IMG/VR virus record: IMGVR_UViG_3300037247_001777
Span: 1-30,440 of that record
DNA: 30,440 bases
From: a virus
Direction: 5' to 3' (one strand)
Shown here: positions 46 to 29,612 of the stretch, one piece after another
Layout of the letters: each line of letters begins with the position of its first letter
Position numbering within the stretch: the first letter of the stretch is position 1
The notes under the pieces: model-generated
Told to the model about the DNA's origin: nothing
Database searches by the model: none
Seen by the model: the letters and a program-made list of their open reading frames with translations, nothing else
Program-made: the position numbers and the translations under genes

Positions 46-76
46 ATTCTCGTCTTGCAAGGGCCTGTACGGGTGA

Positions 77-107
77 GGAGCAGTGAGTTAAGAGTTACTT
101 CTCTATG
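77..107 (+). repeat. Left-arm repeat, copy 1
   Basis: This 31-base segment matches 585-615 at 27 of 31 positions, sharing the core GGAGCAGTGAG followed by AAGAGTTACTTC. It forms the left arm of the hairpin enclosing the tRNA-like element. Copy 2 has the same arm but only a short loop where the tRNA-like insert would be. The two copies flank the gene at 258-578. They could be RNA structural arms, regulatory sites or protein-binding sites; closeness to the packaging genes also allows a packaging-site role. Confidence 0.7.
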
Positions 108-185
108 CAAGAGGGAGGTCGCAGGTTCAAATCCTGCCACGCCTATCAAGTTCTGCGTGTAGCTCAGTTTGGTTAGAGCGCCTTG

Positions 186-212
186 TTACCTCTTTTCAAT
201 TTTCTCTCCTCA
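186..212 (+). repeat. Right-arm repeat, copy 1
   Basis: The stretch TTACCTCTTTTC..TTTTCTCTCCTCA matches 624-651 with two substitutions and one inserted base. It is the right arm of the hairpin around the tRNA-like RNA, and its CTCCTCA end pairs with TGAGGAG at 74-80. The CU-rich end is complementary to a Shine-Dalgarno sequence, so it could also mask ribosome binding sites. That is inference. Confidence 0.65.
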
Positions 213-242
213 CTTCCCGGTTGAAAAACCCATACCCCTTCA

Positions 243-578: not shown

Positions 579-582
579 TCTT

Positions 583-651
583 GGGGAGCAGTGAGGGAAG
601 AGTTACTTCGCTTTGAAACCGTATTACACTCTTTTCGGTTTTCTCTCCTCA
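583..651 (+). ncRNA. Hairpin element, second copy without tRNA-like insert
   Basis: This intergenic element has the same arms as 71-215. The left arm (585-615) is 27/31 identical to 77-107, and the right arm (624-651) is nearly identical to 186-212. GGGGAG (583-588) pairs with CTCCTC (645-650), and GAAGAGT (597-603) pairs with ACTCTTT (628-634), giving a two-helix hairpin. The loop is short (about 14-25 bases) where copy 1 carries the 78-base tRNA-like insert. The ribosome binding site of the next gene (AAGGAGG, 661-667) follows within 12 bases and could pair with the CU-rich right arm, so translational control is possible. Confidence 0.5.
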
Positions 652-1051: not shown

Positions 1052-1067
1052 CACTCCTCAAAAAGCA

Positions 1068-1141
1068 AAAGACTCAGGGTGGAAAGGAGAACTTACTGGT
1101 GAGATGATGTCTCAAAGGTAGGTTCTTCAACCTGAGTCTTT
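1068..1141 (+). ncRNA. Three-helix structured RNA hairpin
   Basis: A 74-base segment folds into one long hairpin. The outer helix is 11 perfect pairs (AAAGACTCAGG 1068-1078 with CCTGAGTCTTT 1131-1141). The middle helix is 10 pairs with two G-U pairs (GAGAACTTAC 1087-1096 with GTAGGTTCTT 1118-1127). The apical helix is 5 pairs (TGAGA 1100-1104 with TCTCA 1110-1114) closed by TGATG. Asymmetric internal loops (1079-1086 against 1128-1130, and TGG against AAG) separate the helices, as in regulatory or protein-binding RNAs. It lies 80 bases upstream of the packaging operon. A few U follow the last helix base, but there is no clear U-tract, so a simple terminator is less likely. No known family is recognised. 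Confidence 0.6.
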
Positions 1142-1220
1142 CAGCCCTCAGAATAGCATAAACCCCCGCCTTTCCCAACCCATTCTCTTGACAGCGCCAA
1201 TACTCTGAAAGAGGAGTAAT

Positions 1221-6500: not shown

Positions 6501-6829
6501 CTCAACTGGTGTTCCAAACCCAAGCCATCAAGATCACCACAAAAGCGGGATTTATTTCCCCGCAAACGGGGAAACGGGTCCCAGGCAGTGATTACGCCGT
6601 ATTTAAGTGCCCAGGTTGCCTCAAGCGCAACAATCAGTGCGTGGTCAATGCCCTCTACCAGATGGACGATGGGGTTCTGGTCTTCCGTTGCAATCAAGGT
6701 TGCGGCCGGGAGATTGAAGTGAGTAAGCCCCAGGCCGAGGCTCCAGAACAGACCTTGATCGTCACCCCAGAGGAATTCGAACGGGAAAAACAGCAAGCAG
6801 GACACATCACCCGGGTACCGGGATACTAG
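6497..6829 (+). CDS. Zinc-ribbon-like hypothetical protein
   Basis: This 110-residue protein contains C38-x2-C41, C48, C65 and C69 (FKCPGC...NNQC...FRCNQGCG), a complete four-cysteine zinc-ribbon arrangement. A beta-rich N-terminal part (1-30) precedes it and an acidic, helical tail (75-105) follows. TTG at 6497 is the likely start: it overlaps the upstream stop, and GGAAGGAGG lies just before it. It is the last of five Cys-rich genes before the portal gene. Such ribbons bind nucleic acid or stabilise small domains; nothing in the sequence tells which applies. Confidence 0.75.
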   Translation: MTQLVFQTQAIKITTKAGFISPQTGKRVPGSDYAVFKCPGCLKRNNQCVVNALYQMDDGVLVFRCNQGCGREIEVSKPQAEAPEQTLIVTPEEFEREKQQAGHITRVPGY

Positions 6830-6838
6830 GAGAAACGC

Positions 6839-8761
6839 ATGGCAAAACCCTTTCCCCCAGCCGGTAGCTCAAGTCCCGTTGACCTTCTCGAGGAGCGGGC
6901 GGATCTGACTCCACAGCAAAACATGGTCCGTCGGCAGATGTGGTGTCGTTACGCCTTCGAAGAAGGCAAGTATTTCATGAAGGGTTCCGAAGAGGTCCAG
7001 AAGCAAGATGAATACATTGGCTACCTGCTGGGGAAGCAATGGCCCAAGAATCGGCCCTCCTACAAGGCGACCCCAATCAACAACCGCTTGCTGAGGCAGA
7101 TGGAAAAGCTGGAAGCGGTCTTGACGGATCTAAAACCCAGCTTCGAAGTTTCCACCCACAACGCAGCCTACGCGGATCAAGCCGAAATTCTCACCAAGAC
7201 AACCAAGTCCTGGTGGACGACCAATGACAATGACTTGAATTTGGCCATGGCGGTGATCCATGCGTATCTCTCGACAGGCTACCTGCGCATTAAGTGGAAC
7301 CCCACTCTCGCGGGCGGAATGGGTGATTTTGAGCTCGAACCCCTGGGTATCTCGGAGGTCATGCCGATCGGCCCCAGTTTTCATTTACAGAAATGGGAAG
7401 GAGTCATCTTCCGATCCATTCGGCCGATGAGCTGGTTCCAAAGAACCTTTCCCACAAGAGGCCACCTGGTTAAGCCCAGCCATGAGTACAGCAGCTACCA
7501 GATGTCGTTCAACCGACCCCGCTGGATTGGTCAGCACTCTTTCGATCTGCTTTCTCCCCAGATGAAAAGAATTCTGGGTGGATCTCCCAAATACGTTGAC
7601 AGCATTGTTCCCCAAGCCCCGTACACGGAATTCTGGATCCGCGACTGGAGTCGAAACACTTCAAGCAACACCGTGCTCATGGGTCCTGCGGACGTGAATT
7701 GGTCCTACAAGGTCCCGCCTGGTGAATTGCTTTACCCACGGGGTCGAGTCCTGGTCACCGGTGGCGACTCTTTCGAGATCATGGATGATGGGCCCAATCC
7801 CAGATGGCACGGCCGGTGGCCCTTTATTGCGCTTCGGATCAAGCCGGTGCCCTGGCAGTTCCATGGGCTTTCGGAACTGATGACCAAAATTCCTCACCAA
7901 GACATCATCAATCACATCCTGGCCGGAACTATGGATATGATCAAAAAGGCGATCAACCCGCCTTTGATGTTTCCGAACAACGCCTTTAGCCCTTCCGTGC
8001 GCCAGAACATGGATCCGTCCATGCCGAATGCCAAGATCGGCTATTCTCCCCTGTCTCCCAACAAACCTGAATACGCCAGACCCCCTGAGTTGCCCAGTTG
8101 GGTCTTCAACACGCTCATGTATATGCAAAATGAGATGGACGACGACTCGGGCCTCCTCGATTTACCAGGCCTCGCGCGCAAGAAGGTGACTCCTGCAGGG
8201 GACACCCTGGAAGAGCTCAAGGAAAGCCAGCAAACCATCATGCGGCTGCGCGGGCGATTCATCGAGTACACCATGAGGGAAATTGGCGAACAGATGGCCC
8301 CCAACTTCATGCAGATGTATACCGTCCAGCGCCGAATGTATATGTTCGGAGCCGGGGGCGTATCTGGGCAAGACGTCTTTGATTGGAACCCTGAAACGAT
8401 GGTCCCGACCGGGATCCCTCCGGAAGAACACATCAAGAACTTTGTCTTCTCTATCCAGCCTGGGAGCTTGCTGAATACCAACAAGGGCAATGAGACTCTG
8501 CTGAAGATGGCTCTCAGGAGACAAGGAGATTATAGTCTCCGGTCGCTGTTTACAGACCTTGGCATTGGCGCGAAATACGACGTAGTGATCAAGGAGCTCG
8601 AAGAAGAGGGAGGAAGCGCCTTCCAGGCGGCTGTGAAAGAACTCCTCACGCAGGCCCTCGCGCAGAGTGGTCTTGGGGATGCTCTTGGGGGTGCTGGTGG
8701 CGGAGCTGGCGGAGGTAAAGGGTCAGTTAATTTGGAAAACCTTTTGAAAACAACCGGATAA
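6839..8761 (+). CDS. Portal protein
   Basis: The portal forms the dodecameric ring at one head vertex through which DNA enters and leaves. The 640-residue size and position between the terminase and scaffold/capsid genes fit. Residues 58-110 carry the typical portal opening: EYIGYLLGKQW, then R72 and P79-x-N81, a helix (LLRQMEKLEAVLTDLKP) and the SFEVSTHN segment. The body is a mixed fold, followed by long helices (about residues 445-500, including EELKESQQTIMRLRGRF) typical of portal stem and crown regions. It ends in a Gly-rich tail (GGAGGGAGGG). The start has TAGGAG seven bases upstream. No frameshift or truncation is seen. The class resembles podovirus-type portals. Confidence 0.85.
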   Translation: MAKPFPPAGSSSPVDLLEERADLTPQQNMVRRQMWCRYAFEEGKYFMKGSEEVQKQDEYIGYLLGKQWPKNRPSYKATPINNRLLRQMEKLEAVLTDLKPSFEVSTHNAAYADQAEILTKTTKSWWTTNDNDLNLAMAVIHAYLSTGYLRIKWNPTLAGGMGDFELEPLGISEVMPIGPSFHLQKWEGVIFRSIRPMSWFQRTFPTRGHLVKPSHEYSSYQMSFNRPRWIGQHSFDLLSPQMKRILGGSPKYVDSIVPQAPYTEFWIRDWSRNTSSNTVLMGPADVNWSYKVPPGELLYPRGRVLVTGGDSFEIMDDGPNPRWHGRWPFIALRIKPVPWQFHGLSELMTKIPHQDIINHILAGTMDMIKKAINPPLMFPNNAFSPSVRQNMDPSMPNAKIGYSPLSPNKPEYARPPELPSWVFNTLMYMQNEMDDDSGLLDLPGLARKKVTPAGDTLEELKESQQTIMRLRGRFIEYTMREIGEQMAPNFMQMYTVQRRMYMFGAGGVSGQDVFDWNPETMVPTGIPPEEHIKNFVFSIQPGSLLNTNKGNETLLKMALRRQGDYSLRSLFTDLGIGAKYDVVIKELEEEGGSAFQAAVKELLTQALAQSGLGDALGGAGGGAGGGKGSVNLENLLKTTG

Positions 8762-19008: not shown

Positions 19009-21987
19009 ATGGGCGTAGCTGGAATTGCAGTTCTTGGTGGCGCGGTAGGTGAAAACGCCTCGTTCCCTGGCACGAAGACGGTGCAGGCCCTGGCCATCAC
19101 CGATGCCACGAACATGATCGTGTTCGATTCGGACGGTGCCAATACGGGTACGATCACCATGGCCTCGCTCACCGCGTCCAGGATTTATACGTTCCCGGAT
19201 GCCAATGTGACCTTCACGGCCGGGACCGGCGTGGTCAATACGGGAACGCCTCTCGATAACCAACTGGCTGTCTGGACGAGCGCAACCGCCATTGAGGGGG
19301 ATCCGAACTTCACCTGGGACGGAAGCACTCTTTTAATGGTCGGCGCTTTGAACATGGGAACTGGAGCTCTGACTACCGGAGTCATCACTGGCACAAGCCT
19401 CAATCTGACGGCCGCGACCAACCAGATCGTCCTCGACTCTGATGGTACCTTCACCGGAACGATCACCATGGCAGCCCTCTCGGCCAGCCGCACCTATACC
19501 TACCCTGATGGCGATATCGTCTTTACGGCGGGTACGCTGCCCACCCTCAGTGGTACGCCGGTCGACAACCAGGTGGCTATCTGGACAAGCGCGACGAATA
19601 TTGAAGGCGATGCCAATTTCACTTTTGATGGGACGAACCTGGCGATTGGAACCTCTGGCTACATCGGCTGGACCGACACCCAGATCCACAGAGATGCCGC
19701 CAACACTTTTGCCTTCTACAATGGCAGCAACAGTCAGCAGCTCAACCTCTATAACACGCGCACGGACGGCAGCAACTACGAGCGGCTTGAAATTTCGTCT
19801 GACGGTAGCACCTGGTCAATCAATAGCGCGAGTGCGGGAAGTGGAGCAGACCAAGATCTCCTTTTGGAAATTGGTGGCGTCAACCTGCTTGGCATCACCA
19901 CTACCGAGCTGATCCCGTACGTCACCACGCGACCGAATACCACGAACGCTCAAGACCTTGGACTGATTGCGACCAACTGGAGAACGGGCTACTTTGGGAC
20001 TTCTCTCCAAGCCGGGATTGCCCTTACTTCTCCCGCCGATGTGGTGATCCTCGACGCTCCTGATCTCGGTGGCGCGGGACAGCAGGATTCCCACTCGCTC
20101 TTGTGGACCGGACTGGCCTTCGATTCCGTTCCCCATGATGCGGACTGGAAAGCCTTCGTCGATGTGACCAGCAACGCGGGTGTTTCGACCTGGACGCTCC
20201 AGAGTCGGATTGATGCCGCCAGTTACGCCACGCGGATGAGTGTCACCGACACTGGGGTAGCGACCTTTTCTGGCACCTTCTCGACAGCCAATCTCGCCCT
20301 GACGGATCCTACTCTCCAAATCGTGCTGGATTCCGATGGTACCTTCACCGGTACGATCACCATGGCCTCTTTGACAGCCTCTCGCACCTGGACGTTCCCA
20401 GACGGAAATTTCATCATGACGGCCGGTACAGGAGTCGTGAACTCTGGAACTCCGGTCAACAATCAGTTGGCCGTCTGGACGACTGCTACAGCGATTGAAG
20501 GCGATTCTGGCTTGACCTGGGACGGAAGTGTGCTTCTCACCACCGGCGTTTTCGAGGGCACGACCCTCAACCTGACAGCAGCGAGCAGTCAGATTGTGCT
20601 GGATTCCGATAGTGTTTTCACTGGAACGCTGACCCTGGCGGCGCTGTCAGTCAGTAGGACTTACACGTTTCCCAATGCGACCGGCAACGTGACCCTTACC
20701 AGCGGATTTCCTCTGAATAACCAACTGGCCGTCTGGACGAGCTCATTCGAGGTTGAGGGGGATTCTGGCTTGACCTGGGATGGGAGTGTGCTTCTCACCA
20801 CCGGCGCTTTCACCGGCACGAGCCTTAATCTCACTGCCGCGACCAACCAGATCGTATTGGATTCTGACGGTACCTTCACTGGGACGATGACCATGGCTGG
20901 TTTATCAGGCAATCGGACCTACACGTTTCCGGATGAAGACGTCGTCTTCGGATCGGGAGGCGTAGTGGCTGCAGGAACTCCTCTGCTCAACGAATTAGCG
21001 GTTTGGAATGACGCCACAACCATTCGAGGCGAACCCGACGTGACCTTCAACGGTTTGGTCCTGACCACAATAAGGCTGGATCTGACGGCTTCCACGAACA
21101 TGATCAGGTTCGGTGTGGGTGGAGCTCCTGGCACCCTAACATCGGACCACACAAGCACCCGCGTTTGGACCTTACCGGATATCTCGGGAGACATACAAGT
21201 CAGCAACGGGCCCCTGCTCGGCGATAGCCTCAACCTGAAGGATATCACCAACCAGATCGTGCTGGATTCGGACGTTACCAACACCGGCACGATCACCCTG
21301 GCCGGTCTCTCAGCGCCTCGCACTTACACCTTCCCGAATGCCTCGGGAACGATATTGTTAAGCGGCGCGACCCTGACCATGCCGACCCTCAACCTGGAAG
21401 ATGCGACCAACCAGATCGTGCTGGACTCGGATGGTACCTTCACCGGAACTGTTACGATGGCTGGTCTCTCAGCCAGCCGCACTTACACCTTTCCGGATGC
21501 AGACATCACCGTCGGAAATGTCTCCAACACGGGAACTCCCGTTAATAACCAACTGGCCGTATGGACCACTGCCACGGTCGTCGAAGGTGACGCCAACCTG
21601 ACCTGGGATGCCACAACGCTTTCTGTCCTGAACGTCACGATCACCAACGATCTGAATCTGTCGGGCGGAGTGGCCCATGGGATCGAGTTTGACAACGGCA
21701 CCGCTGGTGCCGCCGATACGATCGACTGGAACGCGGGCAACAACCAAAGATCAACCCTCGATGAAAACGTGACCTATACCTTTACCGACCCACCAGGGCC
21801 GACCAAGTTAGTGTTGCGAATCATCCAGGACGCCGGCGGAACGAACACGGTGACCTGGCCTGCTTCGGTTGAGTGGGAAGGCGGGGCAGCTCCGACGATC
21901 AGCGCAGGCTCAAACGCCATTGATGTGGTTTCGTTCTACCACGACGGAACCACCTATTACGGATCATTTTTGCAGAACTTCTCATAG
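19009..21987 (+). CDS. Repeat-rich tail fibre or spike-like protein (992 residues)
   Basis: This large protein holds eight copies of a repeat beginning near residues 35, 138, 436, 527, 613, 697, 748 and 801. Each repeat has a core of NQIVLDSDG, then FTGTITMA, SRTYTFPD and, in most copies, NNQLAVWT and EGD...TWDG. The sixth copy is degenerate. Copies 2 and 3 are separated by a different insert (about 216-435), and the C-terminus (about 888-992) is a distinct beta-rich domain ending YHDGTTYYGSFLQNFS. Such beta-repeat chains with a C-terminal cap are typical of fibre or spike proteins that reach host receptors. Near-identical DNA blocks at 20503-20548 and 20761-20806 show recent duplication. No S74 chaperone motif is present at its end. 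Confidence 0.7.
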   Translation: MGVAGIAVLGGAVGENASFPGTKTVQALAITDATNMIVFDSDGANTGTITMASLTASRIYTFPDANVTFTAGTGVVNTGTPLDNQLAVWTSATAIEGDPNFTWDGSTLLMVGALNMGTGALTTGVITGTSLNLTAATNQIVLDSDGTFTGTITMAALSASRTYTYPDGDIVFTAGTLPTLSGTPVDNQVAIWTSATNIEGDANFTFDGTNLAIGTSGYIGWTDTQIHRDAANTFAFYNGSNSQQLNLYNTRTDGSNYERLEISSDGSTWSINSASAGSGADQDLLLEIGGVNLLGITTTELIPYVTTRPNTTNAQDLGLIATNWRTGYFGTSLQAGIALTSPADVVILDAPDLGGAGQQDSHSLLWTGLAFDSVPHDADWKAFVDVTSNAGVSTWTLQSRIDAASYATRMSVTDTGVATFSGTFSTANLALTDPTLQIVLDSDGTFTGTITMASLTASRTWTFPDGNFIMTAGTGVVNSGTPVNNQLAVWTTATAIEGDSGLTWDGSVLLTTGVFEGTTLNLTAASSQIVLDSDSVFTGTLTLAALSVSRTYTFPNATGNVTLTSGFPLNNQLAVWTSSFEVEGDSGLTWDGSVLLTTGAFTGTSLNLTAATNQIVLDSDGTFTGTMTMAGLSGNRTYTFPDEDVVFGSGGVVAAGTPLLNELAVWNDATTIRGEPDVTFNGLVLTTIRLDLTASTNMIRFGVGGAPGTLTSDHTSTRVWTLPDISGDIQVSNGPLLGDSLNLKDITNQIVLDSDVTNTGTITLAGLSAPRTYTFPNASGTILLSGATLTMPTLNLEDATNQIVLDSDGTFTGTVTMAGLSASRTYTFPDADITVGNVSNTGTPVNNQLAVWTTATVVEGDANLTWDATTLSVLNVTITNDLNLSGGVAHGIEFDNGTAGAADTIDWNAGNNQRSTLDENVTYTFTDPPGPTKLVLRIIQDAGGTNTVTWPASVEWEGGAAPTISAGSNAIDVVSFYHDGTTYYGSFLQNFS

Positions 21988-26196: not shown

Positions 26197-26412
26197 ATGA
26201 GCAAGGACGCGATTCGACCAGCTGACAACATCAAACTGGCCGAGATAGAGCTCAACATCGAGCGTGGCGGAAAGACCATGCTGGAGGACGTTCAGAGCCT
26301 GATCGAGCGGATCAAGGCGGACGAGAAGAAGATCCGCCAGAGGGAGAAGGAGATCAACGATCACCACCGGCACATGGATGGGATTTACCGCGATCACCTG
26401 GATCGGGGATGA
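26197..26412 (+). CDS. Small coiled-coil protein ending in an HMDGIYR motif
   Basis: The 71-residue product is mostly a charged coiled coil (about 14-55, LAEIELNIERGG and SLIERIKADEKKIRQ) followed by EINDHHRHMDGIYRDHLDRG at the end. The last part is encoded by DNA that recurs at 29126-29158 inside the GNAT-like gene, in the same reading frame. An AAGGAGC site lies upstream at 26178-26184, somewhat far, and GCAGGAA is nearer. The coiled coil suggests a trimeric linker or tail connector. The shared motif could be a docking peptide or a footprint of recombination. Confidence 0.65.
   Translation: MSKDAIRPADNIKLAEIELNIERGGKTMLEDVQSLIERIKADEKKIRQREKEINDHHRHMDGIYRDHLDRG
26361..26393 (+). repeat. 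33-nt direct repeat, left copy
   Basis: These 33 bases match 29126-29158 with two mismatches, including 24 consecutive identical bases (26370-26393). Both copies encode an HHxHMDGIYR segment in the same frame, but in otherwise different proteins. The copies bracket a 2.7 kb block of fibre-like genes (26425-28982). The match is far better than expected between unrelated genes and suggests a shared peptide module or a recombination joint. Confidence 0.8.
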
Positions 26413-29021: not shown

Positions 29022-29612
29022 ATGGCATCCATACCAACAAGCATGACTGCAACCAACGGGATCGTTGCGTATCCCTGGTGGTCCAACAAGGACCTCTTTC
29101 CAGCGGACATGGTGGAGAACATCTATCACCACTTGCACATGGATGGGATTTACCGCGAAGTCATGCACGAGCGGGAGCTCCCCAAAGAGGAATTCGTGGC
29201 CATGATGAGCGGTTATCCCAACACGATTCTGACGCTCTTTGTGGATACGAATACAGGGAAGTACCCGGGGATCGGCTGGATAGGCGATATTTCCAGGACG
29301 GACACGATTATGAGGGGAGTTGGGGCTTTTGCCTTCTTCCGTGAATTCTGGAACCCGAAAATAACCAAGGCGTGTGGGATCCGGGTCCTAGATAATTGGT
29401 TCAATGACATTGGATTCGATCTGATCTATGGACTGACGCCCCAGCCAAACATACTGGCAAGGCGCTATTGCCAACAGTTGGGCTTTCGATACATCGCGCA
29501 CCTGCCTGGATTTACTTGCTACCACGGGGAAACCGTTGATGGCTTGATTTGTATGCAGACCAAAGAAGAATTCAATGCTTCTCTTAACTACAAGGAGTTG
29601 ATCAATGGGTAA
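29022..29612 (+). CDS. GNAT-like acetyltransferase domain protein
   Basis: The product (196 residues from ATG 29022) has features of the GNAT N-acyltransferase fold. An N-terminal helical part leads to a central beta-region (TILTLFVDTNTGKYPGIGWIGDI), a helix with RVLDNWFNDIGFDLIYG, and a late NILARRYCQQLGFRYIAHLPG segment resembling the acyl-CoA-proximal A-x-R-x5-GF motif. The start at 29022 is preferred over ATG 29004 because AGAGG lies nearby. The HHLHMDGIYRE segment near residues 36-46 is encoded by the right-hand 33-nt repeat. Such domains occur in phage virion-gene blocks, where their substrate is unknown. Catalytic activity is not proven. Confidence 0.6.
   Translation: MASIPTSMTATNGIVAYPWWSNKDLFPADMVENIYHHLHMDGIYREVMHERELPKEEFVAMMSGYPNTILTLFVDTNTGKYPGIGWIGDISRTDTIMRGVGAFAFFREFWNPKITKACGIRVLDNWFNDIGFDLIYGLTPQPNILARRYCQQLGFRYIAHLPGFTCYHGETVDGLICMQTKEEFNASLNYKELING
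29126..29158 (+). repeat. 33-nt direct repeat, right copy
   Basis: This copy pairs with 26361-26393 with two mismatches (24 consecutive identical bases, 29135-29158). It lies inside the GNAT-like gene, in frame, encoding an HHLHMDGIYRE segment. Together the copies flank the fibre-like genes at 26425-28982. Homologous exchange between them would delete or swap that cassette; this is an inference. Confidence 0.8.

What the first reader, a model, noticed from the sequence alone, without database searches (positions are those of the whole stretch)
71..215. Permuted tRNA-like fold closed by a long outer hairpin
The sequence shows a tRNA 3' half (T-arm, 116-142) before a 5' half (D-arm, 155-185). 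The acceptor-like pair CACGC/GCGTG and anticodon-stem-like pair CAAG/CTTG both close in this reversed order, and an extra outer helix (73-80 with 206-213) holds the whole unit. Known permuted tRNA genes are described from some algae and archaea; I know of none from phages. The anticodon loop is replaced by the outer arms, as the tmRNA P2 helix replaces an anticodon arm, but the 4-bp D-stem is tRNA-like. It may be a tRNA mimic that recruits RNase P, a synthetase or CCA-adding enzyme, or a decayed gene.
Basis: partly seen in the sequence, partly recalled or inferred. Interest (0 to 1): 0.72.

Follow-up and report, generated by a model that had tools for sequence, protein, structure and literature searches.

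The report
Phage Y RNA that mimics tRNA
The odd "back-to-front tRNA" at the start of this phage contig is a bacterial-type Y RNA (YrlA), a known small RNA that copies part of a tRNA's shape and is carried by many bacteria and phages next to the gene for its protein partner Ro60; what is left open is that this phage piece holds two Y RNAs but no visible Ro60 gene.

Summary
It is not a permuted or decayed tRNA gene. It is a bacterial Y RNA of the YrlA type, in which exactly this permuted tRNA-like module sits on a Ro60-binding stem. Evidence: the only Rfam match in the whole window is YrlA (32.7 bits, E 0.0015, below the curated cut-off). A covariance model built from 16 other phage and bacterial YrlA-like RNAs matches 74-212 at 86.8 bits (E 6e-19). 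All five helices of that model covary. The same motif lies on the same strand as a Ro60/TROVE gene in 72 of 117 viral and 95 of 119 bacterial loci. Full-length model matches flank the Ro gene of five cultured phages. A second, shorter Y RNA without the tRNA module lies at 582-651 (E 2e-8). One detail is corrected: the family-consistent anticodon-like stem is 181-184/112-115, not CAAG/CTTG. No Ro60 gene is found in the 30.4-kb contig; the contig starts 72 bases before the RNA, so Ro60 may lie outside. Phage YrlA RNAs are already reported, so this is a new member of a known kind. Function (Ro60/PNPase scaffold or tRNA decoy) is inferred.

The parts
73..213 (+). Y RNA 1 (YrlA type): Ro-binding stem plus permuted tRNA-like module
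   Evidence: Model R1, not trained on the window: 74-212, 86.8 bits, E 5.7e-19, full length; Rfam RF02553 YrlA at 114-182, 32.7 bits, E 0.0015 over the window, GA 69
73..80 (+). lower (Ro-binding) stem, 5' strand, pairs with 206-213
   Evidence: 8 perfect pairs by sequence; covarying helix 1 of A1, 6 of 7 pairs with changes on both sides
81..87 (+). CAGTGAG, conserved unpaired strand between lower and inner stem
   Evidence: conserved in other phage and bacterial loci
90..94 (+). inner stem 5' strand AAGAG, pairs with CTCTT 190-194
   Evidence: covarying helix 2 of A1; coordinates
95..101 (+). TTACTTC, conserved strand after the inner stem
   Evidence: present in every training sequence, partly because the search pattern required it
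112..115 (+). anticodon-stem-like 3' strand AGGG, pairs with CCTT 181-184
   Evidence: tRNA-register pairs 27-43 and 28-42 kept in 92% of 166 modules
121..137 (+). T-arm: stem 121-125/133-137, loop TTCAAAT
   Evidence: 100% paired and covarying in A1
138..159 (+). acceptor-like hairpin CACGC / GCGTG with 12-nt loop (closed, no CCA end)
   Evidence: 100% paired, all 6 pairs with changes on both sides in A1
162..179 (+). D-arm: stem 162-165/176-179, loop with GG
   Evidence: 100% paired, covarying
190..194 (+). inner stem 3' strand CTCTT
   Evidence: pairs with 90-94
200..213 (+). conserved TTTTCTC (200-206) and lower stem 3' strand (206-213)
582..651 (+). Y RNA 2: short form, same Ro-binding stem and conserved strands, tRNA-like module replaced by a short loop; starts 4 bases after the stop of ORF 315-578
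   Evidence: R1 42.6 bits, E 2.4e-8 with the module deleted; 84-89% identical to the outer arms of Y RNA 1

Best explanation
Window 73-213 is a phage-encoded bacterial Y RNA of the YrlA type, and 582-651 is a second, short Y RNA. Shown by sequence: the 5' and 3' ends form a Ro60-binding stem with its conserved unpaired strands, and the far end is a tRNA-like module in the permuted order T-arm, closed acceptor-like hairpin, D-arm. Inferred: the stem is bound by a Ro60/Rsr ring protein, encoded elsewhere in this phage genome or by the host, while the tRNA-like elbow is read by proteins that recognise tRNA shape (tRNA-modifying enzymes, PNPase or tRNA-directed nucleases). As described for Deinococcus Y RNA in the held papers, it would tether Ro60 to PNPase to steer RNA decay during infection, or act as a tRNA decoy.
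For: Rfam: the only match in the window at E <= 1 is YrlA at 114-182. Model R1, built without the window, matches 74-212 at E 5.7e-19 and 582-651 at E 2.4e-8; a tandem tRNA array gives at best 33 bits. Training alignment: 88.6% of cells paired against 42-52% in slid controls, 24 of 29 pairs with changes on both sides. Ro60/TROVE gene on the same strand near the motif in 72 of 117 viral and 95 of 119 bacterial loci, never on the opposite strand. Five cultured phages found through their Ro protein, not through the motif, carry full-length R1 matches beside the Ro gene: 10KY502B 101 bits, Atuin 88, phage G 86.5, BRock 72, Alone3 65. Phage contig L006 has three copies of the stem motif just upstream of a Ro-like ORF. 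Literature: bacterial YrlA is a circularly permuted tRNA mimic, PDB 6CU1 (PMC11472068), with a basal stem for Rsr and a tRNA-like domain binding PNPase (PMC8394870).
Against: The Rfam score is below the curated cut-off (32.7 against 69), although none of 16 related records, most of them with a Ro gene, exceeds it either. No Ro60 gene is found in the 30.4-kb record. The search pattern used to gather relatives came from this RNA, so part of R1's sequence signal is circular; the helices, the Ro linkage and the cultured phages are not. No transcript or binding data. No good promoter or terminator was found around the RNA.
Confidence: 0.95

Rival explanations
1. A permuted tRNA gene: the RNA is cut and its ends rejoined (as in red algae) to give a functional tRNA.
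For: The halves are in the right order and rejoin to a tRNA-like fold.
Against: ARAGORN assigns no amino acid to any rejoined form. The acceptor-like stem has 5 pairs, positions 1-72 and 2-71 do not pair, and there is no CCA. The outer arms are the conserved Ro-binding stem, present also without any tRNA module (582-651, and L006 loci).
Confidence: 0.01
2. A remnant of a tandem tRNA array: the 3' half of one tRNA followed by the 5' half of the next.
For: The only phage DNA match (66 bases, 82%) is such a junction in Escherichia phage BYEP02.
Against: Neutral debris would not keep the outer stem, the conserved strands and covarying stems across unrelated phages and bacteria. BYEP02 tRNA junctions score at best 33 bits, in the tRNA part.
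Confidence: 0.01
3. A Y RNA fossil: a YrlA copy in a phage that has lost Ro60 and no longer uses the RNA.
For: No Ro60 in the record. The inner stem of Y RNA 1 is short (5 pairs, then mismatches).
Against: Both copies keep every conserved strand. Y RNA 1 keeps all T-arm, D-arm and five acceptor-like pairs. The record is a fragment starting 72 bases before the RNA.
Confidence: 0.05
4. A Y RNA used with the host's Ro60, or as a free tRNA decoy, the phage having no Ro60 of its own.
For: 10 of 20 viral records with a strong YrlA match and no Ro near the RNA show no Ro60 anywhere by Pfam or by a phage-Ro profile, among them records of 77, 100 and 106 kb. A competitive-inhibitor role of the tRNA-like domain against an anticodon nuclease has been proposed (PMC7790460).
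Against: None of the nine of these records that were checked has end repeats, so all may be fragments. Ro60 can lie upstream of the Y RNA (17 of 72 viral cases), that is, outside this window.
Confidence: 0.2

Closest known systems
YrlA, bacterial Y RNA (Rfam RF02553; PDB 6CU1 from Salmonella)
   Same: Outer stem joining the 5' and 3' ends; tRNA-like module in permuted order T-arm, acceptor-like hairpin, D-arm; Ro60/Rsr partner gene next to relatives
   Different: Scores below the Rfam cut-off, like the phage and bacterial relatives tested here; no Ro60 gene in this record
Y RNAs beside Ro genes of cultured phages (Bacillus phage G, Arthrobacter phage Atuin, Streptomyces phages BRock and Alone3, Xanthomonas phage 10KY502B)
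   Same: Full-length matches to the same model, 65-101 bits
   Different: Those phages carry the Ro60 gene within about 2.5 kb; this record shows none
Y RNA pair of the Salmonella rsr-yrlBA-rtcBA operon
   Same: Two Y RNAs close together (operon named in PMC7790460)
   Different: Here the RNAs precede terminase and head genes, not an RNA-repair operon; yrlB was not compared by sequence
Permuted tRNA genes of red algae and archaea
   Same: 3' half before 5' half
   Different: Those mature into tRNAs; this keeps a closed acceptor hairpin and a Ro-binding stem
tmRNA
   Same: tRNA-like domain with a long helix where the anticodon arm would be
   Different: Not permuted in this way and carries a tag reading frame; none found

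Membership tests
YrlA / bacterial Y RNA | match to the curated Rfam model at its gathering score | tested here: not met
   32.7 bits against 69, though the only family matched in the window; none of 16 related records reaches 69 either, 14 of them with sub-threshold matches. This is a score threshold of one library rather than a structural feature of the family.
YrlA / bacterial Y RNA | permuted tRNA-like module: T-arm, closed acceptor-like hairpin, D-arm | tested here: met
   covariation in relatives
YrlA / bacterial Y RNA | basal stem of 5' and 3' ends with conserved Ro-binding strands | tested here: met
   same strands in Y RNAs beside Ro genes
YrlA / bacterial Y RNA | Ro60/Rsr (TROVE) gene in the same genome | tested here: inconclusive
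   none in the 30,440-base record; record is linear, without end repeats, and starts 72 bases before the RNA
YrlA / bacterial Y RNA | binding to Ro60; modification of D and T loops; transcription | not testable with these tools
   needs experiment
Permuted tRNA gene | rejoined halves give a complete tRNA with anticodon and 7-bp acceptor | tested here: not met
   ARAGORN returns only tRNA-? with two- or four-letter anticodons; 5-bp acceptor-like stem
tmRNA | tmRNA gene with tag peptide | tested here: not met
   no tmRNA or tRNA by ARAGORN or Rfam in the window

The most novel reading that the evidence does not exclude
This phage, like some other Y-RNA-bearing phage contigs in which no Ro gene could be found, carries Y RNAs without its own Ro60, and uses them to take over the host's Ro60/PNPase machine or as tRNA decoys against tRNA-cutting defences.
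Probability: 0.17. Interest if true: 0.6.

Novelty: new member of a known kind. Interest (0 to 1): 0.35.

Why it matters
It turns a puzzling "permuted tRNA" into a recognisable part of a known RNA machine and shows that tRNA finders and the Rfam cut-off miss most phage Y RNAs: two short DNA patterns pulled out 167 loci with a Ro60 gene on the same strand. If Ro60-less phages with Y RNAs are real, they offer a direct test of what Y RNAs do on their own, for example as tRNA decoys against tRNA-cutting phage defences.

Tried and rejected
Permuted tRNA gene and tandem-tRNA debris: rejected. Close relatives of this phage: only one terminase relative, a 4.9-kb piece that does not reach the RNA, and distant capsid or terminase matches. 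An exact permuted-module pattern found nothing. A search of IMG/VR with the L006 Ro protein returned only L006 itself. The third conserved-looking hairpin at 1064-1146 is not matched by the Y RNA model. The primary papers on bacterial Y RNAs (Chen 2014, Wang 2018, Sim & Wolin 2018 and 2020) are not held, so their content is cited through later papers or from general knowledge. End repeats were sought in nine of the ten Ro-less records and in the window to prove completeness: none found.

Full report
What was checked. The window is a 30,440-base linear viral record with terminase, portal and capsid genes. ARAGORN finds no tRNA or tmRNA in the window, and rejoining the halves gives only an unassigned tRNA.

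First false lead. The only DNA match among 50,697 phage records is a 66-base stretch of Escherichia phage BYEP02. It is a junction in an ordinary tRNA array with a partial duplication. This shows that any tRNA 3' end followed by a tRNA 5' end can look permuted, so the outer parts had to be tested.

The outer parts gave the answer. The arms around the module recur at 582-651 without a tRNA module. A pattern made from them hit an unrelated phage contig, L006, where three tandem copies lie directly upstream of an ORF with a weak TROVE (Ro60) match and a sequence match to TROVE proteins of known structure. Ro60 binds Y RNAs, and bacterial YrlA is known to be a circularly permuted tRNA mimic (PMC11472068; PMC8394870). 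Rfam's YrlA model is indeed the only family matched anywhere in the window at E <= 1: 114-182, 32.7 bits, E 0.0015, gathering score 69.

Family test. From these and the earlier hits, 16 RNAs other than the window were aligned (A1). Their structure has five helices: Ro-binding lower stem, inner stem, T-stem, acceptor-like stem, D-stem. 88.6% of cells pair against 42-52% when partners are slid, and 24 of 29 pairs show changes on both sides. A covariance model of A1 (R1) matches the window at 74-212 with 86.8 bits (E 5.7e-19) and at 582-651 with 42.6 bits (E 2.4e-8, tRNA module deleted); the next match is at E 0.7. The BYEP02 array scores at most 33 bits, in the tRNA part. The low Rfam score is usual for this group: none of 16 related records reaches the cut-off.

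Link to Ro60. A profile of six phage Ro proteins (A3) applied to all fetched loci finds a Ro ORF on the same strand in 72 of 117 viral and 95 of 119 bacterial loci that carry the pattern, never on the opposite strand; the median distances are 230 and 73 bases. Pfam TROVE is found in 11 of 13 viral records and 10 of 10 bacterial genomes with such RNAs, against 1 of 14 control genomes. Because my pattern came from the window, an independent route was also taken: cultured phages were found by their Ro protein. Five of the six fetched have full-length R1 matches beside the Ro gene: Xanthomonas phage 10KY502B (three RNAs, up to 101 bits), Arthrobacter phage Atuin (88), Bacillus phage G (86.5), Streptomyces phages BRock (72) and Alone3 (65). 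The sixth, Nitratidesulfovibrio phage SRB7757, gave no match in the stretch fetched.

A correction. In 166 related modules the tRNA-register pairs 27-43 and 28-42 form in 152 and 153 cases with six pair types each, and 29-41 in 106. In the window this helix is C181-G115, C182-G114, U183-G113, U184-A112.

No Ro60 here. Neither Pfam TROVE nor the phage Ro profile finds Ro60 in the record. The Y RNA begins at 73, so anything upstream is missing; in 17 of 72 viral loci Ro60 is upstream of the motif. Still, 10 of 20 viral records with a strong YrlA match and no Ro in the first stretch have none in the whole record, including records of 77, 100 and 106 kb. The nine of these tested have no end repeats, so completeness is unproven. 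This is a lead, not a finding.

Mechanism. Shown: anatomy, conservation, covariation, linkage of the family to Ro60. Inferred from published work on other bacteria: the stem is held by the Ro60 ring, and the tRNA-like end is read by tRNA enzymes or PNPase. In D. radiodurans, Y RNA tethers Rsr to PNPase for structured-RNA decay (PMC7790460, PMC8394870). A decoy role against anticodon nucleases has been suggested (PMC7790460). For a phage, both steering RNA decay and shielding tRNAs are plausible; nothing here separates them.

Novelty. Y RNAs in phages are already reported: mycobacteriophages (Chen et al. 2014, cited in PMC12282133), other phages (PMC7765460), and TROVE proteins in jumbo phages (PMC7824862). 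This is a new member of a known kind. The practical lesson is that standard thresholds miss most of them, and that at least one appears to be annotated as a tRNA.

Noticed in passing
window 1064-1146: Very stable intergenic hairpin (-39.8 kcal/mol, z -6.4) between ORF 674-1051 and the HTH gene at 1221; not matched by the Y RNA model or convincingly by Rfam.
   Followed up: partly
L366 2116-2249 (OQ622092.1, Xanthomonas phage 10KY502B): The annotated tRNA-Thr (L366 2121-2188) lies inside a full-length YrlA match of 101 bits, so it is probably a misannotated Y RNA; in Alone3 (L367) a tRNA-Ser call overlaps a weaker match (52.6 bits, 1858-2003).
   Followed up: partly
L006 6130-6400: Three tandem Y-RNA-like stems upstream of a divergent Ro60 ORF (6732-8390) in an 8.5-kb phage contig.
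   Followed up: yes
L123 147-4195: RNA ligase gene (PF09414) close to a Ro60 gene and at least two Y RNAs in a phage contig, like the bacterial link of Ro60 with RNA repair.
   Followed up: partly
viral records holding L198, L202, L203, L139, L209, L232, L218, L231, L180, L183: Strong YrlA matches but no detectable Ro60 in the whole record; two have homing-endonuclease-like ORFs upstream of the RNA (L202, L139; judged by eye).
   Followed up: partly
window 19102-21512: Imperfect repeats of about 100-160 bases within the 992-aa tail-fibre-like ORF 19009-21987.
   Followed up: no
window 26349-26393 and 29114-29158: 45-base near-identical stretch (89%) in two different ORF regions.
   Followed up: no
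L004 1462-1560 (Escherichia phage BYEP02): Partial tRNA duplication in the tRNA array that produces a pseudo-permuted junction.
   Followed up: yes
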